Assembly (NCBI GenBank): GCA_017540265.1 | Contig: JAFYBJ010000037.1 | Location: 1 to 60,115 of the forward strand | DNA from: Lachnospiraceae bacterium | Lineage (GTDB): Bacteria > Bacillota > Clostridia > Lachnospirales > Lachnospiraceae | Direction of reading: 5' to 3' | DNA length: 60,115 nt | Shown here: piece by piece, positions 5,557 to 34,877 of the stretch | Layout of the letters: the number at the start of each line of letters is the position of its first letter | Numbering within the stretch: the first letter of the stretch is position 1 | Notes under the pieces: generated by a model | What the model was told of the DNA's origin: nothing | Database searches by the model: none | The model's input: only the letters and a program-made list of their open reading frames with translations | Position numbers and translations under genes: made by a program

Positions 5557-6181
5557 ACCTCTGGATATAGAAAAAAGAAGTTTCGGGATAATCGATAAGG
5601 AGCTTAAGGAAAAAAATATCATCCTTCCCGCAGACCGTGAGAATATCATAAAGAGAGTGATACATGCCAGCGCGGATTTTGAATATGCCGATACCATGTA
5701 TTTTTCCAATGGTGCGGCAGAGAGAGCAAAAGAGCTTCTTTTAAGCGGATGCATAATAGTGACGGATACGAATATGGCTTTTTCCGGAATAAACAAAAAG
5801 ACACTTACGGAGCTTGGCTGTGAGGCGTATTGTTTTATGAATGATGAAGGGATAGCAGAGAGCTCAAAGAAAACGGGAAAGACCAGGGCATATCTTTCGA
5901 TGCATCATGCCGTTAAATTATTTAAAGGAAAAAAAGTCATGTTTGTTTCAGGTAATGCACCTACGGCACTCATCGCTTTAAAAGAGATATATGATGAAAA
6001 AACATACAGACCGGATTTTATCATCGGGGTGCCGGTAGGCTTTGTGAATGTTGTTGAAGCAAAAGAAATGATAATGGAAACAGATATTCCCTGCATAATA
6101 AATAAAGGACGTAAGGGCGGCAGCAATATAGCCGCTGCAATAGTTAACGCCCTTATGTATGAGCTAAAGAGAGTGGTATGA
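5543..6181 (+). CDS. cbiC: Cobalt-precorrin-8 methylmutase
   Basis: A 212-residue enzyme that moves the C11 methyl to C12, turning cobalt-precorrin-8 into cobyrinic acid. Recognised by the N-terminal I-E-KRSFGII segment, [11 protein letters not shown] with the conserved catalytic-region His (about residue 41), the internal [10 protein letters not shown], and [16 protein letters not shown]. The frame also has an ATG at 5537, but the TGAGG SD ends only one base before it. The ATG at 5543 gives a normal 7-base spacing and is preferred. The start overlaps the cbiP 3' end. Confidence 0.95.
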
Positions 6182-7293
6182 GATACGGTTTTACAACAGG
6201 AAGCGCTGCTGCGGCTGCTGCAAAGGCAGCGGCATTTATGCTTCTTTCGGGGAAGGAAAAAACCACTGTTGAGATAATGACCCCGAAGGGAATACTTTAC
6301 AATGCAAAGATAAATAATATATGTCTGAAAGAAAATGAGGCCTCATGCAGTGTGACAAAGGATGGAGGAGATGATCCCGATATCACTGACGGTATGGAAA
6401 TATATGCGGAAGTTTCTTTTTCTGACAGCGATGAGACAGAGATAAAGGGCGGCAAAGGCATAGGTACCGTAACAAAGCCGGGGCTTGACCAGCCCGTAGG
6501 AGAAGCTGCGATAAATCATGTGCCACGTGCGATGATAAGGGCTGCTGTATCGGAAGTGGCGGAAATATTTGATCATAAGGGTGGATTTACGGTGACGATA
6601 TCAGCGCCGGCGGGAGAAGAACTGGCGGCAAAAACCTTTAATCCAAAGCTGGGTATAGAGGGCGGTATTTCTATAATAGGAACAAGCGGTATCGTGGAGC
6701 CCATGAGTTCCGATGCTCTTATAGAAACCATAAGGCTTGAGCTTAAGCAGAAGAGAGCATTAGGTGATGAAAATGTGATAGTCGCGCCGGGAAATTACGG
6801 ACAGGATTATATAAAAGAGCATCTGGGATATGATATAGATAAAAGCGTGAAGTGCAGTAATTTCATAGGTATTACAATAGATATGGCGGCAGAGCTTGGC
6901 TTTAAGAAGTTTTTCATGATAGGTCATATAGGAAAACTCATAAAGCTTTCAGGCGGGATCATGAACACTCACTCGAAAGAAGGTGACTGCAGGATGGAGC
7001 TTATGTCGGCATTTGCGCTAAAGGCCGGAGCTGACAGGGAGACAGCCCTTAAACTTCTGGAACAGGTATCTACGGAAGCTGCTGTCGGAGTTCTTAAGGA
7101 AAAAAATGTTCTTAAAGAAACTATGGAGCTTGTGATGGAAAGCATCGCTTTTCATATGCAGAAACGGGCAGGCGGTCAGATGAAGACAGAGTGTCTTGTA
7201 TTCGATAATATAAACGGTGAGCTGGGAAGGACAAAAGGTGTGAACGAATGGTTTACTTTACAGGCGCGGGAAGCGGAGCAAAAGACCTTATAA
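6178..7293 (+). CDS. cbiD: Cobalt-precorrin-5B C1-methyltransferase
   Basis: A 371-residue SAM-dependent methyltransferase of the CbiD family, which adds the C1 methyl in the anaerobic pathway only. The start [17 protein letters not shown] is the family hallmark, followed by VTKDGGDDPDITDG, GIGTVTKPGL and IIGTSGIVEPMS. A GHIGK segment appears near residue 260. It overlaps cbiC by 4 bases (ATGA). The final 46 bases overlap the start of the cbiFG fusion gene in another frame. Confidence 0.95.
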   Translation: MRYGFTTGSAAAAAAKAAAFMLLSGKEKTTVEIMTPKGILYNAKINNICLKENEASCSVTKDGGDDPDITDGMEIYAEVSFSDSDETEIKGGKGIGTVTKPGLDQPVGEAAINHVPRAMIRAAVSEVAEIFDHKGGFTVTISAPAGEELAAKTFNPKLGIEGGISIIGTSGIVEPMSSDALIETIRLELKQKRALGDENVIVAPGNYGQDYIKEHLGYDIDKSVKCSNFIGITIDMAAELGFKKFFMIGHIGKLIKLSGGIMNTHSKEGDCRMELMSAFALKAGADRETALKLLEQVSTEAAVGVLKEKNVLKETMELVMESIAFHMQKRAGGQMKTECLVFDNINGELGRTKGVNEWFTLQAREAEQKTL

Positions 7294-23191: not shown

Positions 23192-23875
23192 ATGCAGTAC
23201 AACATAACAGGAGGCAATCTCCCCGTAGTTATCATGCAGCTTGAAGCAGGTGAATCCGTACGCTGCGAGTCCGGTGCAATGTCCTGGATGGATGCCGGTA
23301 TCAACATGGAAACAAATACAGGCGGCGGTATGGGCAAACTCCTCGGAAGGATGTTCACCGGAGAATCCCTTATGCTCAATACCTACACAGCCACTCAGCC
23401 CGGCGAGATCGCTTTTGCATCTTCTTTCCCCGGATCCATTGTGGCATACCAGGTACAGCCCGGCAGGCCCATAATGGCTCAAAAAGGCGCATATCTGGCA
23501 AGCATAGGAAATGTGGAAATGTCCGTGGGATTCCAGAAAAAGATAGGCGGCGGATTCTTTGGCGGCGAAGGTTTCCTTATGCAGAAATTTGAAGGCGACG
23601 GCATAGTATTCTTTGAAATCGACGGCTCCACCGTGGAATACGATCTGCAGCCCGGTCAGAGAAAGGTGATCGATACCGGTTATCTTGCAATAATGGATGC
23701 CAGCGTCACACTGGATGTCGAAATGGTAAAAGGCGTTAAAAATATGATCTTCGGCGGTGAAGGGCTCTTCAATACCATACTTACAGGCCCCGGCCACATT
23801 ACACTCCAGACAATGCCCATACCTAATACGGCAGCCACGCTTTACAGGTACATGCCTCATCCCAGCTCGAATTAA
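23192..23875 (+). CDS. AIM24 / TIGR00266-family protein
   Basis: A 227-residue protein of the AIM24-like double-psi-like beta family. Recognised by VVIMQLEAGESVRCESGAM, then a glycine-rich GGGMGKLLGRMFTGESLMLNTYT, GEIAFASSFPGSIVAYQV and GGGFFGGEGFLMQKFEGDG. Bacterial members are widespread and have no firm function; mitochondrial AIM24 affects inner-membrane organisation. A strong SD (AAGGAGG) lies 8 bases upstream. A dispersed repeat directly precedes it and three more, two of them decayed, follow it. Confidence 0.85.
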   Translation: MQYNITGGNLPVVIMQLEAGESVRCESGAMSWMDAGINMETNTGGGMGKLLGRMFTGESLMLNTYTATQPGEIAFASSFPGSIVAYQVQPGRPIMAQKGAYLASIGNVEMSVGFQKKIGGGFFGGEGFLMQKFEGDGIVFFEIDGSTVEYDLQPGQRKVIDTGYLAIMDASVTLDVEMVKGVKNMIFGGEGLFNTILTGPGHITLQTMPIPNTAATLYRYMPHPSSN

Positions 23876-24050: not shown

Positions 24051-24080
24051 AGATATACTGTGTCGTTATTTAAGAATTAC

Positions 24081-24109
24081 TTGACGATAGTAAAGTAAAA
24101 TTATATTAT
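24081..24109 (+). promoter_or_regulatory. Sigma-A-type promoter for the kinase/HTH operon
   Basis: TTGACG (24081-24086) and TATTAT (24104-24109) are separated by 17 bases in a very AT-rich stretch. A start near 24116 would give a leader of about 40 bases before the ATG at 24158. Confidence 0.55.
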
Positions 24110-24157
24110 AAATATGATTTAGCTTGACATTTGACAAGTACTTTTATGGAGGCTTAT

Positions 24158-24967
24158 ATGAATGATATCATTTCCGACCTTCAGGACATGAGATATCTTA
24201 ACTGGACCAGAACAAGAAAATCTTCCGGCACAGCAGGTTCGTTTTTAAAAGCCTATGATGACAGCGGAAAGAAAAAGAAATATTATAAGCTTTCTGATTA
24301 TGATCCGGTAAATGGTATCATAGGACATGAATGCGTAAACGAGATCATTGTACAGAGACTGCTTAATCTGCTGGGATTTGCACATCTTGATTATATGCTT
24401 ATTCACGGAACGGTCCGAATTGATGATAAAGAATATGAAACATATCTTTGCGAGTCGGAAGATTACAAAAATCCCGGAGAGAGAAAGATATCTCTTGAAG
24501 ATTACTATGCAATGGAAAAAGAAAATGATGAAACTCCATTTGACTTCTGCGTTCGTAAAGGCTGGGAGAAATATGTCTATGAAATGTTTCTTACCGATTA
24601 TCTCGTTCTTAACAGAGACCGTCATGGGGCCAATATAGAAGTGCTGCGTGATCCAAAGCTTAAAAAAGACAGGCTCTCACCTTTGTTTGATCATGGTCTC
24701 AGTCTCGTATGCAGATGTCATACATCGGAGGAATTAAAAAAATTTGATGTGATGGAAGATAAGAGAGTTCAGTCCTTTGTCGGATCATCGAGTACTTTGA
24801 TGAATATTAAGATGATCCCAAAGGATTATCTTAATATTCTTCCTGAGTTAAATACAAAGGATATTAAAAAAATATTTGAAGGACTGGATACTGTTATCGG
24901 AGCAGAATATATTTCAAAAATGAATGAAATGATCAAAAAAAGGTGGTGCAGCCTTGATAATATTTGA
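24158..24967 (+). CDS. Small HipA-like protein kinase
   Basis: A 269-residue protein with a compact HipA/CtkA-type kinase layout: a glycine-rich SSGTAGSF loop (about residues 22-29), a candidate ATP Lys in YYKLSDY, a helix Glu in GHECVNEIIVQRLL, the catalytic loop NRDRHGANIEV (N-x-D-x-H-G-x-N), and a metal-binding DHG in SPLFDHGLSL. It lacks the N-terminal subdomain of classical HipA. The frame opens further up with a TTG, but GGAGG lies 5 bases before the ATG at 24158. The last 14 bases overlap the next gene, an HTH protein. A toxin or signalling kinase controlled by that partner is plausible but not shown. Confidence 0.75.
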   Translation: MNDIISDLQDMRYLNWTRTRKSSGTAGSFLKAYDDSGKKKKYYKLSDYDPVNGIIGHECVNEIIVQRLLNLLGFAHLDYMLIHGTVRIDDKEYETYLCESEDYKNPGERKISLEDYYAMEKENDETPFDFCVRKGWEKYVYEMFLTDYLVLNRDRHGANIEVLRDPKLKKDRLSPLFDHGLSLVCRCHTSEELKKFDVMEDKRVQSFVGSSSTLMNIKMIPKDYLNILPELNTKDIKKIFEGLDTVIGAEYISKMNEMIKKRWCSLDNI

Positions 24968-25757
24968 AATAAGAAACATGAGCGAGAAAAAAAGATTATT
25001 GGGATATCTGTTTTATTACGAAAAAAGCAGACGCTTCTTTGCCGAATTGTTAAATGAAACAGATGAATGGGATTCTCCGTTTATCTTTTCATCACATGTA
25101 AAAAAAGGCATACGAAGCATAGACTCTGTCTGGAGCGCAAAATTTGTTTATCAGAGGATAATCCCCCCAGACAGGCAAAACCTCGGAAGTATATTAAAAG
25201 AAAACGATCTGAAAGTATATGATGAATTTAAGCTGCTTCAACTGAGCGAAGGCCGCTGCGCACAGGATGATCTGTATCTGTTAAGGATAAAAGAGGATAA
25301 GATACTGCCGGAGATACAGGAACGTCTGAGGAAAAAAGTAAAAGACGTGATACCGTTTGCAGATTTCAAGGCATTGATATTCTTTAACGACGGTAAAAGC
25401 TGCTATGCTGATATAAAAGAAATTCGCGGCGAAGATATTTCATTTGCAAATGTTCTGAGAAAAGAAGCTGTATTTAAAAATGTATCTGTATCTCCGGGGG
25501 GGAACGGTATCGAATGGGGAGAAGAGCTTTATATCCCGGCGGAGAGTCTGAGAGCATGCGGAGATGATGCATTAATAACGTATGATGATATTCTGTTCTT
25601 CATAAAAGAAAGAACCTCCGATACCACTGAAGCTGCAAAACTGCTTAATTGTTCGAGACAATATATAAACCAGCTGACAGAGAAGAACAGGCTGATCCCT
25701 GTCCGGAAAGAAAGCGCCCTAAATATCTACATGAAGAGCTCTATAGAAGTATTATGA
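24954..25757 (+). CDS. DUF2442-like protein with C-terminal helix-turn-helix
   Basis: A 267-residue protein starting with TTG; AGGTGG lies 7 bases upstream of this codon, while the ATG at 24978 has no SD. The N-terminal 120 residues are unrecognised. Residues about 138-205 resemble DUF2442 (FFNDGKSCYADIKEI, VFKNVSVSPGGNGIEW, ELYIPAESL). The C-terminal 50 residues are an excisionase-type HTH (TTEAAKLLNCSRQYINQL). The start overlaps the kinase gene by 14 bases, so expression is coupled. It is probably the DNA-binding regulator or antidote of the kinase. The stop overlaps the convergent histidine kinase by 6 bases. Confidence 0.7.
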   Translation: MIIFEIRNMSEKKRLLGYLFYYEKSRRFFAELLNETDEWDSPFIFSSHVKKGIRSIDSVWSAKFVYQRIIPPDRQNLGSILKENDLKVYDEFKLLQLSEGRCAQDDLYLLRIKEDKILPEIQERLRKKVKDVIPFADFKALIFFNDGKSCYADIKEIRGEDISFANVLRKEAVFKNVSVSPGGNGIEWGEELYIPAESLRACGDDALITYDDILFFIKERTSDTTEAAKLLNCSRQYINQLTEKNRLIPVRKESALNIYMKSSIEVL

Positions 25758-27035
25758 AAGCGGTATCGTGATAGTAACCACAGTGCCGCCGCTTTCCGGA
25801 GCTTCTATTTCAAGTGTCCCGTTGCAGATAAGCTTTATTCTGTTTTTTATATTATCCAGAGCTATATGAGTTTTTTTGTGGGTGTCGTTTTCCGCGTGGG
25901 TTGAAAAGCCGGGACCATTATCTGAGATCTTTATTTCCACGGAGTTTTTTTTCTTCCGGGTGCGGATGGTAACATAAAGCGGTCCGCATTCGGGATCGCA
26001 GCCGTATTTTACCGAATTTTCCACCAGAGGCTGAAGCGTAAGGGGCGGAATGGAAAAAGAAGTAAAGGGCGTGTCGTATTCCACATACAGGCTGTCTTCA
26101 AAGCGGACGCTTTCTACGGCAAGGTATGAGCGGATGTGCTCAAGTTCTTCAAGAAAGGGTATGGTATCTTCTTTTGCAAAGGCGGAGAAATTGCCGCGCA
26201 GATAGCGGGTAAAATTCGTGATCACTTCCTGTGCCTTGTCTGTATCCTGCTTTACAAGATAGTAAATGCTGGTCATGGTGTTATATATGAAATGAGGGCG
26301 CATCTGAAGAGCCAGGATGCTTGCCTGCTGCTGCATTATCTCCTCCTGCTGTGCCTTAAACTGCTCCATCTGATCGATGCTTATGGAGAGTAGCATGAAA
26401 AAGGCTGCGGCAGATACACCGAGAACTATGAGAAGCAGCCCGTAGGAGCAGATCTGAATGAGCATACAAACAAGCGGTATGAACATATTGACGGCTAATA
26501 TACGGAACTGACGGGTTGCCAGCAGGGTTCTCTTTTTTAACAGCAGAGTGATGTTGATAAGCATTGAAAGGACAATGGGGATCAGAAGAAGGGGGTAGCG
26601 GCTGCCGCGGTGATAGATATTGTCCTCATCTACATAGTAGATATAAGTGGTAAACTGCGTAACGGTTAAGAGTGCAAAATATACGACCCACAGAATGATA
26701 ACGAAGGTAAATGTGCGGCTGTGGGCGACAGTTTCCCCTGTGCAGTGCAGCAGATATATCGTGAGCATGGGCATGAGAACTGAGGAAAAAAATGATTCAA
26801 GAAAGACCGCTGTTTTTGAAAGAAAGGCGCATTCCGGGCCTCCAAAGATCAGGGAGATCTGCGATGCCAGGTCGCTGCATGTATATATGATGAGAAAGAT
26901 AAAAAAAACCGTAAAATATTTTTTTTCCCAGCTTCCCTTATAGGGCATGAAGTTGGTGAGGATAAACCCGAGGATCGCAAGGGTCAGTCCGGATATGACT
27001 ACGGCAAAATTTGTCAGATCGATCCAGTTTGTCAT
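25752..27035 (-). CDS. LytS/YpdA-type sensor histidine kinase
   Basis: A 427-residue membrane sensor. The N-terminal half carries six or seven hydrophobic segments without a large extracellular domain. The kinase core has the His-kinase box MRPHFIYNTMTSIYYL, the N-box PLVENSVKYG and the G-box SDNGPGF. The C-terminus ends in ITIPLS. The frame extends further upstream, but MTNWIDLTNF at 27035 has an AGGAG SD 11 bases before it, directly after the response-regulator stop. It is cotranscribed behind the HTH-receiver gene as the second gene of a two-component system. Confidence 0.88.
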   Translation of the reverse strand: MTNWIDLTNFAVVISGLTLAILGFILTNFMPYKGSWEKKYFTVFFIFLIIYTCSDLASQISLIFGGPECAFLSKTAVFLESFFSSVLMPMLTIYLLHCTGETVAHSRTFTFVIILWVVYFALLTVTQFTTYIYYVDEDNIYHRGSRYPLLLIPIVLSMLINITLLLKKRTLLATRQFRILAVNMFIPLVCMLIQICSYGLLLIVLGVSAAAFFMLLSISIDQMEQFKAQQEEIMQQQASILALQMRPHFIYNTMTSIYYLVKQDTDKAQEVITNFTRYLRGNFSAFAKEDTIPFLEELEHIRSYLAVESVRFEDSLYVEYDTPFTSFSIPPLTLQPLVENSVKYGCDPECGPLYVTIRTRKKKNSVEIKISDNGPGFSTHAENDTHKKTHIALDNIKNRIKLICNGTLEIEAPESGGTVVTITIPLS

Positions 27036-27054
27036 ATCTGTATATACTCCTGTC

Positions 27055-27642
27055 CTATACGGATGTAAGCGGATAGCGAAGTCTTGAAAGCTGCTTTTGC
27101 AAAACCTCTTTTGAAAGGGGCTTGAGCGCGAAGCCACAGGCGCCGGTATCCCATGCATCAAAGGAATAATCGGCATAGGCGGTCAGGTATATAACATTTG
27201 TGCGGGGATTGATATCCAGAAGCTTTCTGCATACCTCAAGACCGTTGGTCCTGCCAAGCTCGATGTCGACAAATGCCAATGTTATCCTGTTTTCTTTTGC
27301 ATAAGCCAGGGCTTCGGAAGAACGGGTAAAGCCTGTGACCATGGCGCCCGGAAGGTTTTCCTTTAAGATCTGCACGCTGCCGTTTAGGATAAGACGTTCA
27401 TCATCCAGCACGAGGACATTGACATTATCGGTATCTGCTCCGGGATTATCTATGAAAACGGAGATATCCACTATCAGGCACGCGGCAAGCTGTCTGATGA
27501 AGGTGATATTGGGGATGCGCCTGCCGGTTTCCCAGCCGGCGATGGTGGAGCGCTCCACACAGAGCATATCGGCTAACTGCTGCTGTGACATTTCTTTCTT
27601 TATTCTTATTTCTCTGAGTGTTTCGGCAAATTTATCGTTCAT
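27055..27642 (-). CDS. Response regulator with N-terminal XRE-type HTH and C-terminal receiver
   Basis: A 195-residue protein with an unusual domain order. Residues 5-60 are a Cro/CI-type HTH (LREIRIKKEMSQQQLADML, then RSTIAGWETGRRIPN). Residues about 74-190 are a receiver domain with all key residues: the DDE acidic pair, phospho-acceptor Asp in LAFVDIELG, Thr in VIYLTAYAD and Lys in ALKPLSKE. Most response regulators put the receiver first. It precedes its histidine kinase by 19 bases and is divergent from the giant MBG-repeat gene, a likely target. Confidence 0.88.
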   Translation of the reverse strand: MNDKFAETLREIRIKKEMSQQQLADMLCVERSTIAGWETGRRIPNITFIRQLAACLIVDISVFIDNPGADTDNVNVLVLDDERLILNGSVQILKENLPGAMVTGFTRSSEALAYAKENRITLAFVDIELGRTNGLEVCRKLLDINPRTNVIYLTAYADYSFDAWDTGACGFALKPLSKEVLQKQLSRLRYPLTSV

Positions 27643-27923: not shown

Positions 27924-30900
27924 ATGAAAAGGAAAGCGAAGAAACTGTTGAGTTTACTGCTGTGCTTTACCATGGTGCTGCAGTCGCTGCCTGTCACATC
28001 ACTGAGCGTAAGGGCAGAGGAGAATGCCTTTGACTGTAAGGTGATCCCGGCACGTGCAGGTGAAGTGACATCTAAAGAGGTTGACAATGGGGCGTCGATC
28101 AAATTCGAAGCCAGTGCAAACACGACAGATGCCAGTGTGAATACGGTAAAGTATACGTTCCGCGAGTATACTTACGAGCACGGTGACGATTCAGAACAGT
28201 CACCAAACAACCCTCTGACGCTGCCGCGTGAGGGCTTAAGCGATATGAAGGCGTATTTTGATTACAACTTCTATGACAGCGTGGGCAGAGTCATCACGGT
28301 TCATTTCGAGGGCGAAGGCAGCTTAGAGCTTGAGGAGTTGAATGATCAGGAAGAGGCAGAGAAGCAGTATAGGGTCGAAGAAATAAATCCGGAAGACGGA
28401 TATGTTTTCAAGGGCTTTATTCTGCCGCAGGGTGTTAAATATGACAGCAAGACAGGCATCCTCTCTGTATCAAATGAGACCAAGCCTGTCGAGATCACGG
28501 CTAATTTCGAGGAGGGATACAGCCTTGTTGTAGGCGGTACAGAGGTTGACGAGGATACCACGGAAGGTACCGGATGGTCCTATGATCTTGAAACAAAAAC
28601 CCTGACATTAAATAATTTCACATATGAAGGCGATGGGAAAGAAAACGGGATCTATTATAAGGATATAGAGGGTTCCCTTCTGACGATCGTGCTCGATGGT
28701 GAAAATACTATATCAGGATGTGATGTCGGTATTATCTCAAACATTGCAGATGTGGAAATAACCGGTGAAGGAGATCTGGCGATATCAGATTGCAGAGAAG
28801 GTATAGTAGCAGATAAAGGAAATATCACTATTTCCGGATCAGGTGATCTGAAGATATCAAGTCAGAGCCCTGAAGATACTTACGGTATTTCAGCGAACAA
28901 TGGCGGTAATCTAACGATCAACGGTAAGGGCGTGGTTGAGATAACAGGCGTCTGCAGTGGTATTAATGCAAACGGAGGTGCTTTTACCTTCGGCGGTAAA
29001 GAGTCGCTGAAGATGACGAAGGTGACACAGGGTATTTTCAGTAGTACTAAAGCCATAACTTTTGAAAGCGAAGGGAAGGTCGAGATAGCAAGTGACCAGC
29101 TTTCCATAGTGAGTGGTACAGGGGCTGATATCAGCTTTAACCGCGGAACAGTAAGTGCTTCGAGTGTGAGGGATTTTTCCATCAGATCGGGTGGGAAGAT
29201 CATAATCGCAACAGGTGCAAAGCTGATTGCAGAAAATACAAGTAAACACATGTTAGCTATGTTTGCTAGTGTCAGCTTAAATAATGCCATAGCCGGAACT
29301 GGCTGGAATGATGAAGGGAATATTGGTGATATTCAGAAATATTTAGGACCTGTTAATTCAGAAGGCCCATATTATTCATATCCTTATGTCAAGGTTCAGT
29401 TCCCTCCCGCGCATAAGCATAACTTTACTTATAAGGTGAGCACAGGCGGGGATGCTATTGAAGCGTCATGCAATAATACAACAGACTGTGATCTTGAAGA
29501 TAACAAGGTAACATTGAAGATAAAGCAGCCTAAGCATGCAAAATACGGAGACAAAAAGGCTGCAGCTGCAACACTTGAAGGCAAGGATGAATTCGAGAAA
29601 GCTACAAAAGCGACGATAGGCGATATTCAGTATTATCGGCAGATCGGAGAAGAAAATAATGGTGCTGCTGTTTGGTCTGAATCACTGAATGCTGCTCCTG
29701 CGGATGTGGTAGGTCGCTATAAAGCTGAGATAGCGGTGACGGTAGGTGATGGTACTACCAGTACTACCTATAAGCCTGCGATAGTATATACTATCGTGCC
29801 GGATATCATATCGCCTTCGGCAAATAAGTTGTCATATACCGGAACTTCACAAAAACTTGTCAGTGTCAGTGAGGGTGCTGCTGCAAGTCTGCCTGAAGGG
29901 TTTAAGTTCCAGTATAAACTTGGTGATGGCGGGTATACTGACTCTATACCTGAAGCAATAGCTGTGGGTGCTTATGCTGTTAAATATAGGGTAACCAGCG
30001 ACAGCACTGTTTACGGTATTACACTTCCAAGCGATGTGGTTATTCCGGATGTTGAGATCAAAAAAGCAAAGTTAACCGTATCTGCAAATTGGGAGCATAC
30101 TTATGATGGAAATGCTGTGACTAATGATACTATTGCTGACCATGTGATCATATCCGGGTATGTGGGTCAGGATGATGCAACCACCGTACCGGTTACCATA
30201 GGTGATGATTATTCCATACGGTGTAATAATGAAGGTCTGGTAGGCGAATATGAGATTGTAATTACAGATAAAAATCACTTCGACCATACTAACTATGTAC
30301 TGGATTGCCAGAACGGCAAGCTGACCATTAAGGAAGCAGTACTGTCATTTAGTGTGCCTCCTGAAGGGGCAGGAGATCTGGTCTACGATGGAACAGAGCA
30401 GGAGCTTGTGACAGCAGGAACTCTTGAAACGACCGGTGACGTTATGTATGTTCTTGGCAGACATGACAGGGAGGCTCCCAAAACTGGCTGGAGCAAGGAT
30501 ATACCTGTCGGTAAGGACGCGAAGACATATTATGTATGGTACAAGGGTGTAGTAGATGGAAATGATCCTAACCATAAGGATTCGGATCCGAAATGTGTTA
30601 CGGTGACGATAGCAAAGGCACCGGTTACTGTTACTATAGCTGATAAGACCAGGGTTTACGGCGATGAAGATCCCGAGCTTACTGCTACAGTAACAGGCAT
30701 GGCAGATGGCGAGGAGCTTGAGTATACTCTGAGCCGTGAAAAAGGCAATACTGTCGGAGAATATACGATAAGTGCCAACTATACCGCGACAAATAATTAT
30801 GAAGTAGAAGTTAAAAACGGTAAATTTACTATCAAGCCTGCAAATGTGGTTGTTTCCGTAAATGCAGTATCCAAAAATTACGGTGACAAAGATCCTGAAT

Positions 30901-33900
30901 TCAGAGCGGATGTAACGGGACTTAAGTCTGGCGATAACGAAAGCGTTATTGCCTACAATATAAGCCGTATCAAAGGTGAAAATATCGGTGAATATCAGAT
31001 CATAGCAAGAGGAGCTGAAACACAGGAAAATTACAATGTAACATATATCCCTGCAAACTTAACCATCAATCCTGCTCCTGTAGTGGTTAAGGCAGAAGAT
31101 AAGGAAAGACTGTACGGTGCTACAGATCCCGAACTTACATGGACAGCTACAGGTCTCAAGAACGGAGATACAAAGGATATCCTGACAGTTCACATTGCAC
31201 GTGAGCAGGGCAATGCTGCGGGAGTATATCCTATCGTTGTAACAGGTGACAAAGAGCAGGGCAATTACAGCATAACTTTCGTTGATGGAAAGTTCACCAT
31301 CATGCCGGCAGATGTTACTATCATCAAACCGGCTGCAAATGAGCTTACTTTCGACGGAGAGGCTCATGACCTTGTAACAGCAGGTTCTGTATCCGAAGGA
31401 AAGATACAGTATGCAGTAAGCACCAATGCTGCAAGTGCTCCCACAGATGAGACTCTCTGGAGTGATAAGGTTCCTCAGAGAACAGATGCAGGAACATATC
31501 ATGTATGGTACAGAGTAGTTGACAATCCTAATTTCAATCATGTAGATCCTGACCATGTGGATGTGACCATTGCGAAGAAGGCTGTCACCATTACCGCAGA
31601 TAAGGCTACAAAGATCTACGGTGAGAAGGATCCTTACTTTACTGCAGTAGTTGAAGGTACGGTGGGAGAGGATACCATTGAATACACTGTATCAAGAGTG
31701 AAGACAACCCAGAATGCCGGTGTATATACGGATGATATACTTCCTGTTGTTTCCGGTACCTACAATAACTACGAGATAACCTGTATTGCTGCTGACTATA
31801 CGATCATGCAGGCAGAGGTTACGGTTACCGCTGCAAATAAGACCAAGGTTTACGGAAATGTAGATCCTGAATTTACCTGGACTGTAACCGGTCTTAAGTA
31901 CAGCGATACGAAGTCTGTGATCACTGCAAATCCGAAGAGAGTTGCAAACGATGATGAAAACGTAGGCGACCACAGGATCATCTTTGAAGATGCTGTCAGC
32001 CAGGATAACTACAAGGTGAAATTTGTCGATGGAACTCTTAAGATAACACCTGCTTCAGTAGTGATCACTCCGGTTGATAAGACCAAGGTTTACGGAGATG
32101 AAGATCCGAAGCTTGAGTGGACGGTAACAGGATTAAGTAATAATGAAACAGAAGAAGTAATAGCAGATAATGTAAGCATAGTCCGCGAGGAAGGCGAGGA
32201 TGCAGGCGAGTATTCAATATTTGTATCCGGTGCCAAGACTTACGGAAACTACAGCTTCAGCTATGGACGTGCCGCGAAGTTAACCATTACACAGAAGGTG
32301 GTCAAGGTTAACTCAGTAAGAACTGTAAGAAAGACATATGATGGTAATAAGTACATCACCTTCAGTGATAATTATGCGACTATCACGGATCTCAATGGCG
32401 GAAGCCTGGATGATAAGCTTAGCGTTTATGTAACTGCCGAATATGATGATGCAAATTCTTCATACAGAGTAAATGACTGGGATGCTCCGAAAACTGTTTC
32501 CATTAACAGCATGATCTTAAGCGGAAATAAGGCTGCAAACTACAGCATTTCCGTAAATGCCAGCAAGAAAACAACAACAGGATACATCGACAGAGCTAAA
32601 GTGACGGTCAGCGCCTGCAGCACATCAAAGGAATATGGTCAGGTGGATCCTGAACTCAAATTTACCTGCGAAGGTCTGATGGATGTTGACAAGAACGAAG
32701 ACGGAAGCATTAAAGACGGCGTCTTCACCGGAAGGCTTACACGTACAGCCGGAGAAGAGGTAGGAGATGATTACGTTATACTTCAGGGTACGCTTGACTC
32801 CCAGAATTACAAAATCGACATATTTGAGGAGGGAACTTTCAAGATCCTTGTGAGCACCATCGATCCCAGCGTATCCGTACAGGGCTGGACCTATGGCGGC
32901 TACAACGAAGAGGTTAACTCACCCAAGGTAACGGGCAACTTCGGAAACGGAGTTGAGACCTATTACTACTATCCTGTAGCTGATGAAGGAGAGGATGTTC
33001 CTGCGACAGATGAGATGCTGGAGGGTACCCCCGCTGAGTTTATTGGAGGTGTTGGAGTTGTTGGAGAAGACGAGGAAGAGGTACAGGGCACAGAGTGGGA
33101 TGATAAGGAAGTTGCAAAGCTTCCCGCAGGTGACTACTGTGTATATGCTCGTGTATCTGACAAGACAGCAAGCGGCAATTCCACAAGCTACAACGCAGCT
33201 ACCACTGCTCCTTTCAGATTTACGGTATCAAAGAAGCTGATCGGTGTAGAATGGACAGACACGACACTTACTTACAACGGTACGGCACAGAAGCCGGTAG
33301 CAACAGCCACCGGAACCGTAAGCAACGATGTGATACAGATCGAAGTAAGCGGTGAGGAGATCAATGTTGGCACCTATCTTGCGGTTGCATCCGGCATCAC
33401 CGGAGAAAGGGCAGGCAGCTATGAGCTTCTCGATGATACAACGATCTTTAACATCAAGAAGGCTGTAGTTACTGTTTCTGCCGACGCTTTAAGCAAGACC
33501 TACGGCGAGGCAGATCCCGAGCTTACAGTTTCCGTAAACGGTGTTATCGGCGAGGACGTTATCGATTATGAAGTGAGCCGTGAGGCAGGCGAGAGCGCAG
33601 GCAGATACAACATCCTGGTTATTGCGGGTGAGAATCCGAACTATGATGTAAAGACTACCGGTGCAAAGCTTGTCATAAACAAGGCTGTGGCTGCTGTAAG
33701 CGTTGTTCCGGCAGCAAAGATACTGGTTTACGACGGACAGGCACAGGAGCTTGTTGAAGAAGGCAGAACAAACGACGGCATAATGTATTATGCGGTAACT
33801 GAAACAAACGCAGCTCCCGCATCATACGCATTCAAGGCAAACGTACCTACGGCTACCGAGGACGGAACCTATTACGTATGGTATATGGTAAAGGGCGATG

Positions 33901-34877
33901 CAGATCACAGCGATATGGTGGCTAAGGAAAGCATCGAAGTGAAGATCGAAGCCTGCGCGGCTGTTGAGAAAAAACCTGTGGCAGTCAGGGATCTTACAGA
34001 AAGCTATGAGGATCAGGCTCTTATAGGTGAAGGAACAGCCTTCGGCGGAAAGATGCTTTATGCTCTCGGTGAAAGTGCTGATGTGGCACCCGAGACCGGC
34101 TGGACCACGGAAGTACCTAAGGCAAAGGCTCCCGGCATATACTATGTATGGTATTATGTTGAGGACGAGAAGGGCTTAAAGGATACGGCTGCAGAGTGCG
34201 TAACGGTTGTAGTGGCTGTTAATGAGAAGATTAAGGCAGAGAGGGCGATAAGCAGCAACCTTGCTACGATCGAGGATACTGTTTCCATCGTTCCCGATGC
34301 AGCAGGAAAGGTATGGATGCTGGATGCATCTGCAAACGATGCTTCCTCCAACGAACTGACTGTAAAGGCTACATTTGTTGTAGGTGCGAAGATAACCCTC
34401 GCAGGATATGACAAGCAGGCTACCAAGCAGTTCAAGGATTTCAATAAGACATCAAAGAAGACAGCTACTATCAGCAACAAGGGCGTGCTGAAGGCCAAGA
34501 AGGCAGGTACAGGCGTACTTAAGTATGTGATGACAGGCGGAAGAGTGGTTACTCTTGACTATACTGTTGTGAAGCCTGCTGTTACGGTCGAGAAGGGATT
34601 GAACATTTCCGTAAGCGCTAATGCACCCGGAGATGCAAACAAGCTTAACGCAACATACAGCGGAGCCGGCACCTATGATGTAAAGATCACAGGTGTGCCT
34701 CTCAATTCCTTATACACCTTCAAGGGCAGGACACCGCTCAGCAAGGATAATATCGTCATCGGTAAGGATGGAGAGATCCACGTTACCGGTGTGGTGGCAG
34801 CAAAGAACAGCTCCAAGATCGTTATCAACGCACAGGGCAAGAAGTATACTGTCAAGGTTGTAGGCAAGTTTAAGTAA
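27924..34877 (+). CDS. Giant secreted MBG-repeat surface protein
   Basis: A 2317-residue protein. The signal peptide is residues 1-31 (KRKAKK, hydrophobic core, cleavage after VRA). Residues about 190-460 resemble a beta-helical carbohydrate-binding region (GWSYDLETKTLTLNNFTY, then ITGEGDLAI-type strands). From about 700 to 2000 run MBG-type domains, eight of them with a (V/I/L)YG-x-x-DPE-like motif (for example RVYGDEDPEL, RLYGATDPEL, KTYGEADPEL), interspersed with YDG-type modules (LTYNGTAQ, LVYDGQAQELV). The last 200 residues include a Big-like segment (TISNKGVLKAKKAGTGVLKY). No LPxTG, SLH or C-terminal membrane segment is present. Probably an adhesin or cell-surface stalk. A GGAGG SD lies 8-10 bases before the ATG. 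Confidence 0.9.
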   Translation: MKRKAKKLLSLLLCFTMVLQSLPVTSLSVRAEENAFDCKVIPARAGEVTSKEVDNGASIKFEASANTTDASVNTVKYTFREYTYEHGDDSEQSPNNPLTLPREGLSDMKAYFDYNFYDSVGRVITVHFEGEGSLELEELNDQEEAEKQYRVEEINPEDGYVFKGFILPQGVKYDSKTGILSVSNETKPVEITANFEEGYSLVVGGTEVDEDTTEGTGWSYDLETKTLTLNNFTYEGDGKENGIYYKDIEGSLLTIVLDGENTISGCDVGIISNIADVEITGEGDLAISDCREGIVADKGNITISGSGDLKISSQSPEDTYGISANNGGNLTINGKGVVEITGVCSGINANGGAFTFGGKESLKMTKVTQGIFSSTKAITFESEGKVEIASDQLSIVSGTGADISFNRGTVSASSVRDFSIRSGGKIIIATGAKLIAENTSKHMLAMFASVSLNNAIAGTGWNDEGNIGDIQKYLGPVNSEGPYYSYPYVKVQFPPAHKHNFTYKVSTGGDAIEASCNNTTDCDLEDNKVTLKIKQPKHAKYGDKKAAAATLEGKDEFEKATKATIGDIQYYRQIGEENNGAAVWSESLNAAPADVVGRYKAEIAVTVGDGTTSTTYKPAIVYTIVPDIISPSANKLSYTGTSQKLVSVSEGAAASLPEGFKFQYKLGDGGYTDSIPEAIAVGAYAVKYRVTSDSTVYGITLPSDVVIPDVEIKKAKLTVSANWEHTYDGNAVTNDTIADHVIISGYVGQDDATTVPVTIGDDYSIRCNNEGLVGEYEIVITDKNHFDHTNYVLDCQNGKLTIKEAVLSFSVPPEGAGDLVYDGTEQELVTAGTLETTGDVMYVLGRHDREAPKTGWSKDIPVGKDAKTYYVWYKGVVDGNDPNHKDSDPKCVTVTIAKAPVTVTIADKTRVYGDEDPELTATVTGMADGEELEYTLSREKGNTVGEYTISANYTATNNYEVEVKNGKFTIKPANVVVSVNAVSKNYGDKDPEFRADVTGLKSGDNESVIAYNISRIKGENIGEYQIIARGAETQENYNVTYIPANLTINPAPVVVKAEDKERLYGATDPELTWTATGLKNGDTKDILTVHIAREQGNAAGVYPIVVTGDKEQGNYSITFVDGKFTIMPADVTIIKPAANELTFDGEAHDLVTAGSVSEGKIQYAVSTNAASAPTDETLWSDKVPQRTDAGTYHVWYRVVDNPNFNHVDPDHVDVTIAKKAVTITADKATKIYGEKDPYFTAVVEGTVGEDTIEYTVSRVKTTQNAGVYTDDILPVVSGTYNNYEITCIAADYTIMQAEVTVTAANKTKVYGNVDPEFTWTVTGLKYSDTKSVITANPKRVANDDENVGDHRIIFEDAVSQDNYKVKFVDGTLKITPASVVITPVDKTKVYGDEDPKLEWTVTGLSNNETEEVIADNVSIVREEGEDAGEYSIFVSGAKTYGNYSFSYGRAAKLTITQKVVKVNSVRTVRKTYDGNKYITFSDNYATITDLNGGSLDDKLSVYVTAEYDDANSSYRVNDWDAPKTVSINSMILSGNKAANYSISVNASKKTTTGYIDRAKVTVSACSTSKEYGQVDPELKFTCEGLMDVDKNEDGSIKDGVFTGRLTRTAGEEVGDDYVILQGTLDSQNYKIDIFEEGTFKILVSTIDPSVSVQGWTYGGYNEEVNSPKVTGNFGNGVETYYYYPVADEGEDVPATDEMLEGTPAEFIGGVGVVGEDEEEVQGTEWDDKEVAKLPAGDYCVYARVSDKTASGNSTSYNAATTAPFRFTVSKKLIGVEWTDTTLTYNGTAQKPVATATGTVSNDVIQIEVSGEEINVGTYLAVASGITGERAGSYELLDDTTIFNIKKAVVTVSADALSKTYGEADPELTVSVNGVIGEDVIDYEVSREAGESAGRYNILVIAGENPNYDVKTTGAKLVINKAVAAVSVVPAAKILVYDGQAQELVEEGRTNDGIMYYAVTETNAAPASYAFKANVPTATEDGTYYVWYMVKGDADHSDMVAKESIEVKIEACAAVEKKPVAVRDLTESYEDQALIGEGTAFGGKMLYALGESADVAPETGWTTEVPKAKAPGIYYVWYYVEDEKGLKDTAAECVTVVVAVNEKIKAERAISSNLATIEDTVSIVPDAAGKVWMLDASANDASSNELTVKATFVVGAKITLAGYDKQATKQFKDFNKTSKKTATISNKGVLKAKKAGTGVLKYVMTGGRVVTLDYTVVKPAVTVEKGLNISVSANAPGDANKLNATYSGAGTYDVKITGVPLNSLYTFKGRTPLSKDNIVIGKDGEIHVTGVVAAKNSSKIVINAQGKKYTVKVVGKFK

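What the first reader, a model, noticed from the sequence alone, without database searches (positions are those of the whole stretch)
24158..25757. Two-gene module: compact HipA-like kinase plus DUF2442-like/HTH partner
The first gene has a HipA/CtkA-type kinase core (SSGTAGSF loop, NRDRHGANIEV catalytic loop, DHG) without the N-terminal subdomain of HipA. The second overlaps it by 14 bases, starts with TTG, and combines a DUF2442-like segment with an excisionase-type HTH. Known hip modules place a short XRE-type HipB first. Here the kinase is first and the DNA-binding partner is a large multi-domain protein. It could be an undescribed toxin-antitoxin or stress-response kinase system. The toxin role is inference.
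Basis: partly seen in the sequence, partly recalled or inferred. Interest (0 to 1): 0.7.

Follow-up and report, generated by a model that had tools for sequence, protein, structure and literature searches.

The report
Split HipA kinase with fused antitoxin-repressor
Two overlapping bacterial genes look like a toxin-antitoxin pair in which a HipA-type kinase is probably held in check by a downstream protein carrying the kinase's missing lid domain plus a DNA-binding part that would switch off the pair's own promoter; it is a new layout of a known kind of system.

Summary
In detail: a 269-aa HipA-type kinase core (24158-24967), overlapped by 14 nt by a 267-aa TTG-started partner with DUF2442-like and excisionase-like HTH regions.

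The pair is conserved: of the best 80 of 379 related stretches in GTDB genomes, 78 have the partner directly downstream; the other two end at a contig edge.

[quoted passage not shown] a direct profile test against HipA N-domains failed. (2) A palindrome, ACTTGAC-N4-GTCAAGT, lies upstream in 73 of 78 loci, against 0 of 77 downstream and 0 of 81 internal stretches. In two divergent relatives both arms change together.

Best reading: a kinase-first HipA-type toxin-antitoxin module with a three-domain antitoxin-repressor. Nearest known: hipIN (PADLOC PDC-M03), hipBST, HipAD. The layout is not among Gerdes 2021's ten as I read them, and five searches of open papers did not show it. Toxicity, target and phage defence are untested.

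The parts
24079..24096 (.). operator-like palindrome, copy 1 (ACTTGACGATAGTAAAGT), overlapping the -35 box
   Evidence: 0 mismatches to ACTTKAC-N4-GTMAAGT; the only exact match in the held part of the own genome, one other site with 1 mismatch
24122..24139 (.). operator-like palindrome, copy 2 (GCTTGACATTTGACAAGT), 43 nt after copy 1
   Evidence: 2 mismatches; at 3 mismatches the whole window holds 6 matches against 5.4 expected, so the evidence for this copy is its place and the same two-copy layout in 31 of 78 loci
24081..24109 (+). sigma-70-type promoter: TTGACG (24081-24086), 17 nt, TATTAT (24104-24109)
   Evidence: read; 64 of 73 loci with the palindrome have a -10-like hexamer 16-18 nt after its TTGAC
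24148..24152 (+). ribosome binding site GGAGG of the kinase gene
   Evidence: sequence
24158..24967 (+). HipA/HipT-like Ser/Thr kinase core, 269 aa, putative toxin
   Evidence: AlphaFold2 pLDDT 90.0, pTM 0.88
24221..24244 (+). SSGTAGSF Gly-rich loop (residues 22-29) with conserved Ser22/Ser23, possible autophosphorylation sites; residues 20-26 low-confidence in the model
   Evidence: role by analogy with HipA/HipT
24611..24634 (+). catalytic loop NRDRHGAN (residues 152-159)
   Evidence: D154 and N159 in 81 of 81
24689..24697 (+). Mg-binding DHG (residues 178-180)
   Evidence: D178 and G180 in 81 of 81
24940..24946 (+). AAGGTGG ribosome site for the partner, inside the kinase gene
24954..25757 (+). 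partner, 267 aa, TTG start; putative antitoxin and autorepressor
   Evidence: AlphaFold2 pLDDT 94.6, pTM 0.85
24954..25298 (+). HipS-like domain (about residues 1-115)
   Evidence: hhalign 94.0% to HipN-type N-domains, which mostly pass the Pfam Couple_hipA cut-off; Foldseek HipA matches E 0.017-0.41; direct hhalign to HipA N-domains failed
25338..25550 (+). DUF2442-like domain (residues 129-199)
   Evidence: 6.2e-5; PDB 2auw by profile 7.6e-4 and by fold 9.7e-4
25581..25754 (+). excisionase/MerR/BldC-like HTH (about residues 210-267)

Best explanation
It is a HipA-type toxin-antitoxin module in a kinase-first layout. The kinase is a bare core, like HipT, and when free would phosphorylate an essential host protein (a tRNA synthetase is the best guess, by analogy) and stop growth. 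[quoted passage not shown] The partner's DUF2442-HTH end binds one or two palindromes over the promoter as a dimer and represses the operon; coupled translation keeps the two proteins balanced. Loss of the partner, or a signal sensed by its middle domain (a phage protein is the likeliest trigger), frees the kinase. Shown here: kinase motifs, pairing, overlap, domain relationships, palindrome. Inferred: inhibition, toxicity, target, trigger.
For: Pairing in 78 of 80 loci, the two misses ending 0-1 nt after the kinase; overlap conserved; catalytic residues invariant in 81 of 81. Partner N-domain related to HipN-type N-domains: hhalign 94.0%, E 1.4e-7, 50 column shuffles at most 5.6%; hmmsearch with the partner profile finds 4 of 5 such proteins (each search covered the ORFs of one locus); PDC-M03B models match 74 of 76 partners at E up to 1, best 9.5e-8. 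Four of those five reference proteins pass the Couple_hipA (HipA N-terminal domain) cut-off. Foldseek of the partner model lists S. oneidensis HipA right after 2auw. Palindrome upstream in 73 of 78 loci, two copies in 31; 0 of 77 downstream, 0 of 81 internal; 100 simple shuffles mean 0.17, 50 dinucleotide shuffles mean 0.2, maximum 2 in each. Two relatives with partners 31-36% identical have ATTTGAC...GTCAAAT, both arms changed together. Published precedents: HipS inhibits HipT by inserting a Trp (PMC10627512, passages); loss of the DUF3037 partner of another HipA-like kinase is toxic and the kinase is needed for phage defence (PMC12548924, passages).
Against: No growth, binding or kinase data. 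Direct hhalign of the partner N-domain to nine HipA N-domains gave 0.1%, no better than shuffles, and Pfam does not call Couple_hipA on the window partner; the link runs through HipN and its significant part is about 40 residues. The Foldseek HipA matches are weak (E 0.017-0.41) and the output does not show which residues aligned. The palindrome pattern was drawn from the same sequences it was counted in; 5 of 78 loci lack it at 2 mismatches. In the P. xylanivorans plasmid relative the partner frame starts 33 nt after the kinase ends, without overlap. The kinase model could not be searched by fold.
Confidence: 0.7

Rival explanations
1. It is first of all a phage-defence module: the kinase aborts infection once a phage product displaces or removes the partner, as proposed for DS-6/HipAD and for the HipA-DUF3037 pair of Retron-Sda1.
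For: Both genes match models of one PADLOC candidate system, PDC-M03; HipA-like kinase plus DUF3037 pairs defend against phage in two papers (passages); patchy presence in 7 of 34 same-genus genomes besides the own one; nearest neighbours differ from locus to locus; one plasmid and two viral-contig copies.
Against: Nearest neighbours are mostly ordinary genes: PADLOC at E 1e-10 gives 35 families among 140 neighbours, none matched by more than 3 (the first 25 of 35 are shown). DUF3037, the partner domain of the tested systems, is absent from the own genome and 60 relatives. No system with this layout has been tested in what I saw.
Confidence: 0.4
2. A signalling kinase and its regulator: the kinase phosphorylates the partner's HTH or lid region to change transcription, without being a growth-stopping toxin.
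For: Conserved operator and DNA-binding partner; Gly-rich loop serines suggest autophosphorylation.
Against: With at most 1 mismatch the operator occurs at only two sites in the held part of the own genome, one of them this promoter, so there is no evident regulon; no conserved neighbour gene; relatives with experimental data act as toxins.
Confidence: 0.15
3. The partner N-domain only looks like HipS; the real antitoxin part is the DUF2442-HTH half, related to the DhiA antitoxin, and the N-domain does something else.
For: Failed direct profile test; DhiA model reaches 1.2e-5 in the best of 8 of 76 partners that match at E up to 0.1; 2auw match is the strongest fold hit.
Against: The N-half holds most of the invariant residues, is shared with HipN proteins and with XRE-fused proteins next to related kinases, while DNA-binding parts differ between these groups.
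Confidence: 0.2

Closest known systems
hipIN modules (Gerdes 2021); PADLOC PDC-M03
   Same: short kinase first, antitoxin second; antitoxin begins with a related HipS-like domain; PDC-M03A/B models match both window genes
   Different: HipN ends in a HIRAN domain (4 of 4 HipN-type proteins examined); the window partner ends in DUF2442 plus HTH, with no HIRAN among the families listed for it, and its kinase falls apart from the HipI-type rows in the tree
hipBST (E. coli O127, Legionella)
   Same: kinase without the HipA N-subdomain, which is supplied in trans as the antitoxin HipS (published; passages)
   Different: three genes in the order B-S-T with a separate XRE HipB; here two genes, kinase first, HipS-like and HTH parts in one chain
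HipAD / DS-6 and the Retron-Sda1 HipA-DUF3037 pair (PDC-M66)
   Same: two genes, HipA-like kinase plus multi-domain partner; TA-like phage defence shown (passages)
   Different: partner has DUF3037 (and DUF1829 in DS-6B); neither is among the families listed for the window partner
[XRE HTH + HipS-like] then kinase, seen in same-genus genomes (L036, L039, L041); perhaps hipRG
   Same: nearest well-supported kinase group in the tree (95/90, together with one fused chain); partner C-domain hhalign 90.4% to the window partner N-domain
   Different: antitoxin gene first, XRE-type HTH at its N-terminus, no DUF2442 listed; no palindrome found in the two loci checked; identity with hipRG not tested
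DhiTA (DUF2442-type antitoxin DhiA) and NE0471 (PDB 2auw)
   Same: DUF2442 followed by HTH, colinear over partner residues 128-250
   Different: DhiA model 14.7 bits against a cut-off of 200; no HipS-like part; its toxin is not a HipA kinase (recalled)

Membership tests
HipA (hipBA) | kinase core of the HipA_C type with intact catalytic residues | tested here: met
   motifs invariant in 81 of 81; HipA_C matched by 81 of 81 at E up to 1, but the window protein is below the curated cut-off (13.9 against 30.5 bits)
HipA (hipBA) | N-subdomain 1 in the same chain | tested here: not met
   the Gly-rich loop is at residues 22-29; no Couple_hipA match listed
HipA (hipBA) | short XRE HipB encoded just upstream | tested here: not met
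   upstream same-strand frame is 23192-23875, not an HTH by eye; partner is downstream in 78 of 80
hipBST | N-subdomain supplied in trans as a HipS-like protein | tested here: inconclusive
   supported through HipN; direct test failed
hipBST | three genes in the order hipB-hipS-hipT | tested here: not met
   two genes, kinase first
hipIN / PDC-M03 | kinase first, HipS-like antitoxin second | tested here: met
hipIN / PDC-M03 | HIRAN domain in the antitoxin | tested here: not met
   no HIRAN among the six families listed for the window partner at E up to 10; PDC-M03B match limited to residues 65-113
HipAD / DS-6 / PDC-M66 | DUF3037 partner | tested here: not met
   no DUF3037 match in the window partner or in the own genome and 60 relatives
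DhiA antitoxin | NCBIfam NF048016 above cut-off | tested here: not met
   14.7 bits against 200
type II toxin-antitoxin | two adjacent, overlapping, co-conserved genes | tested here: met
type II toxin-antitoxin | autoregulation through an operator over the promoter | tested here: inconclusive
   conserved palindrome found; binding not tested
type II toxin-antitoxin | toxin stops growth, antitoxin neutralises it | not testable with these tools
   needs an experiment

The most novel reading that the evidence does not exclude
A widespread, undescribed Hip family in which one antitoxin chain joins the kinase lid (HipS-like), a DUF2442 sensor and a dimeric repressor, so that a single phage- or stress-derived ligand could both free the kinase and switch its operon on. 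It would show that HipS-like lids act as interchangeable inhibitor cartridges (HipS, HipS-HIRAN, XRE-HipS, HipS-DUF2442-HTH).
Probability: 0.35. Interest if true: 0.65.

Novelty: new variant of a known kind. Interest (0 to 1): 0.5.

Why it matters
If right, it adds a kinase-first layout to the Hip kinases that is common in gut and rumen Clostridia and also present in Coriobacteria, gives DUF2442 a concrete context as part of a kinase antitoxin, and offers a ready test system: a defined palindrome, a lid domain that can be tried alone, and a kinase whose target can be looked for. It also links PADLOC's uncharacterised PDC-M03 candidate with the published hipIN description.

Tried and rejected
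Direct homology of the partner N-domain to HipA N-domains: hhalign against nine sequences gave 0.1%, below the best of 50 shuffles (7.8%); the link was then sought and found through HipN-type proteins. Of five HipN/HipS-type references the partner profile found four; L167 gave no partner match.

DUF3037 as the N-domain: rejected, no match in 60 relatives or the own genome. Empty-site test in the two nearest species: no synteny beyond one gene, so not decidable. Defence-island test: neighbours diverse and mostly ordinary. Phage records: 4 matches, none covering 80%. Fold search of the kinase model never ran. pdb_via was not on the machine, so the aligned range of the HipA matches is unknown.

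Rows dropped: partners of L108 and L126 (frame broken) and L140 (cut by the contig end) were left out of A3; L128 and L159 have no partner sequence. L125, L134 and L139 have under 150 nt upstream and were left out of the palindrome count. The kinase tree used 20 of the 80 loci, plus the window, L032 and L046, plus 19 other kinases chosen by me (42 rows).

Full report
What is there. The window holds an ATG-started 269-aa gene (24158-24967) and a TTG-started 267-aa gene (24954-25757) sharing 14 nt. The first has the motifs of HipA-family kinases: SSGTAGSF, NRDRHGAN and DHG. Single-sequence Pfam support is weak (HipA_C E 0.044), but PADLOC PDC-M03A matches at 1.1e-10, CtkA among solved structures at 5.7e-4, and the profile of 81 relatives matches CtkA at 9.8e-7. 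The AlphaFold2 model has pLDDT 90.0 and pTM 0.88, with residues 20-26 (Gly-rich loop) uncertain. The second gene has a DUF2442-like region and an excisionase/MerR-like HTH; its model has pLDDT 94.6 and pTM 0.85.

Conservation. Full-length kinase relatives (52-72% identity) occur in 7 of 34 same-genus genomes besides the own one, each with the partner next to it (8 of 8 with the window). A scan of GTDB species genomes gave 379 related stretches; the best 80 were kept, from Lachnospiraceae and other Clostridia, Erysipelotrichaceae, Coriobacteriaceae and Atopobiaceae by their titles. The partner lies directly downstream in 78 of 80; L128 and L159 end 0-1 nt after the kinase. Overlaps are 11-32 nt, all 2 modulo 3; chosen starts are TTG in 38 and ATG in 40. 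The partner frame is broken in L108 and L126. A Pseudobutyrivibrio plasmid carries a kinase at 50% identity; there the partner frame starts 33 nt after the kinase. Two viral contigs carry relatives, one a whole pair. Nearest neighbours fall into 66 clusters for 68 loci upstream and 66 for 72 downstream, so the module moves as a unit or is kept in varied places.

What the partner is made of. Residues 128-250 line up with the DUF2442-HTH protein NE0471, PDB 2auw (profile 7.6e-4; Foldseek 9.7e-4). The HTH matches excisionase in 60 of 76 partners and the DhiA antitoxin in 8 of 76 at E up to 0.1. The first ~110 residues match no Pfam family, but they hold the motif RIIPPDRQNLG..L....L..YDE..LL.LS.GRCAQD. 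The same motif appears in the N-terminal half of PDC-M03B proteins (74 of 76 partners match such a model at E up to 1, best 9.5e-8) and in the C-terminal half of XRE-HTH proteins encoded before related kinases. Profile comparison gives 94.0% (E 1.4e-7, 40 columns) to the former and 90.4% (49 columns) to the latter, against at most 5.6% for 50 column shuffles of the former. The PDC-M03B-type proteins that I fetched (L042, L167, L168, L169) all pass the HIRAN cut-off; three of these four, and the short protein L170, pass the Couple_hipA (HipA N-terminal domain) cut-off, and L169 does not. They therefore look like HipN of hipIN modules (HipS-like plus HIRAN, Gerdes 2021, PMC8262856; abstract, passages and parts 1-2 of 3 of the results read). 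Against this stands the direct test: the partner N-domain against nine HipA N-domains gave 0.1%. By fold, S. oneidensis HipA follows 2auw in the list (E 0.017 and 0.029, probability 0.82 and 0.91; 0.16 and 0.41 for two more entries), but the ranges are not shown and the E-values are not strong. The predicted order of elements in residues 1-112 (three strands, four helices, one strand) fits what I recall of the HipA N-subdomain. I take the domain as HipS-like with moderate confidence.

Operator. Upstream stretches of the kinase gene are unlike one another except for a palindrome, ACTTGAC-N4-GTCAAGT (seen). With up to two mismatches to ACTTKAC-N4-GTMAAGT it occurs in 73 of 78 upstream stretches of up to 200 nt (window plus 77 loci), in two copies in 31, most often 41-46 nt apart (22 of 31); it is absent from 77 stretches after the partner and 81 stretches inside the kinase; simple shuffles give 0.17 on average (100 runs) and dinucleotide shuffles 0.2 (50 runs), at most 2 loci. 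The pattern was drawn from these sequences, so its strength is partly by construction; but pairwise identity is 78% in the palindrome, 26% in the 55 nt before it and 36% in the 20 nt after it (55 loci). In 64 of the 73 a -10-like hexamer stands 16-18 nt after the palindrome's TTGAC. In the window the exact copy is 24079-24096 and a 2-mismatch copy is 24122-24139; at 3 mismatches the window shows no excess (6 against 5.4 expected). In the own genome (73% complete) the pattern with at most one mismatch occurs here and once elsewhere. In the two relatives with the most divergent partners of alignment A2 (31-35% identical) the arms read ATTTGAC and GTCAAAT, and in the viral relatives arms with GTC/GAC also occur: mirrored changes, as expected for a symmetric dimer. 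Five loci lack it: L123, L129, L149, L150 and L156.

Relation to known systems. A tree of 42 kinases puts the window type together (87/95; one clade in 88% of bootstrap trees), nearest to kinases of the XRE plus HipS-like type and one fused chain (95/90), apart from HipI-type, CtkA-like and HipA rows; several branches are long and part of the order is open. Gerdes 2021 lists ten organisations; kinase-first ones exist (hipEB, hipIN, hipJS, hipMP) but none with HipS-DUF2442-HTH in the parts I read; its supplementary tables were not seen. Searches for PDC-M03, HipA with DUF2442, HIRAN/HipS/HipN, DUF2442 with antitoxin, and HipA with phage defence did not show this layout (open-licence papers only). 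Related pairs have been tested: the HipA-like kinase with DUF3037 of Retron-Sda1 defends against Bas51, and loss of DUF3037 is toxic (PMC12548924, passages); DS-6/HipAD needs its kinase residue (PMC13092281, passages). HIRAN plus HipA genes beside diDNases are predicted to be phage defence (PMC11706625, passages). HipS blocks HipT by inserting a Trp (PMC10627512, passages).

Mechanism. The parts fit a toxin-antitoxin module in which the kinase's lid, the repressor and a possible sensor sit in one antitoxin chain made second from a coupled start. Inhibition by the lid, growth arrest, the target (a tRNA synthetase by analogy) and release by phage are inference. Phage defence is plausible but the neighbourhood does not argue for it.

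Verdict. The finding is real; it is a new layout of a known kind, not a new kind of system.

Noticed in passing
G000:C67 about 5620-7290 (L207 1120-2788, - strand): The own genome also holds a canonical-looking hipBA: an XRE HipB frame followed by HipA spread over two overlapping frames, so HipA looks frame-broken here (or misassembled).
   Followed up: partly
L172 5983-6498: A viral contig has one 172-aa frame that runs from the kinase's start (profile 2-85) straight into the partner's end (184-268), as if the middle had been deleted.
   Followed up: no
L139 from 2011, + strand: A 134-aa frame matching HipA N-domains lies a few hundred bases after the pair in one relative: perhaps a second hip module.
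   Followed up: no
L040 3969-5261: One same-genus genome encodes HTH, a HipS-like-looking stretch and a HipA-type kinase in a single 430-aa chain.
   Followed up: partly
window 27055-27642, - strand: A protein that reads as an XRE HTH followed by a response-regulator receiver domain, next to a histidine-kinase-like gene (25752-27176); an unusual domain order, by eye only.
   Followed up: no
window 27924-34877: A 2317-aa secreted-looking protein of many repeats starts shortly after the module's neighbours.
   Followed up: no
G000:C67:48506-48523: The only other near-match (1 mismatch) to the operator palindrome in the own genome; its gene context was not examined.
   Followed up: no
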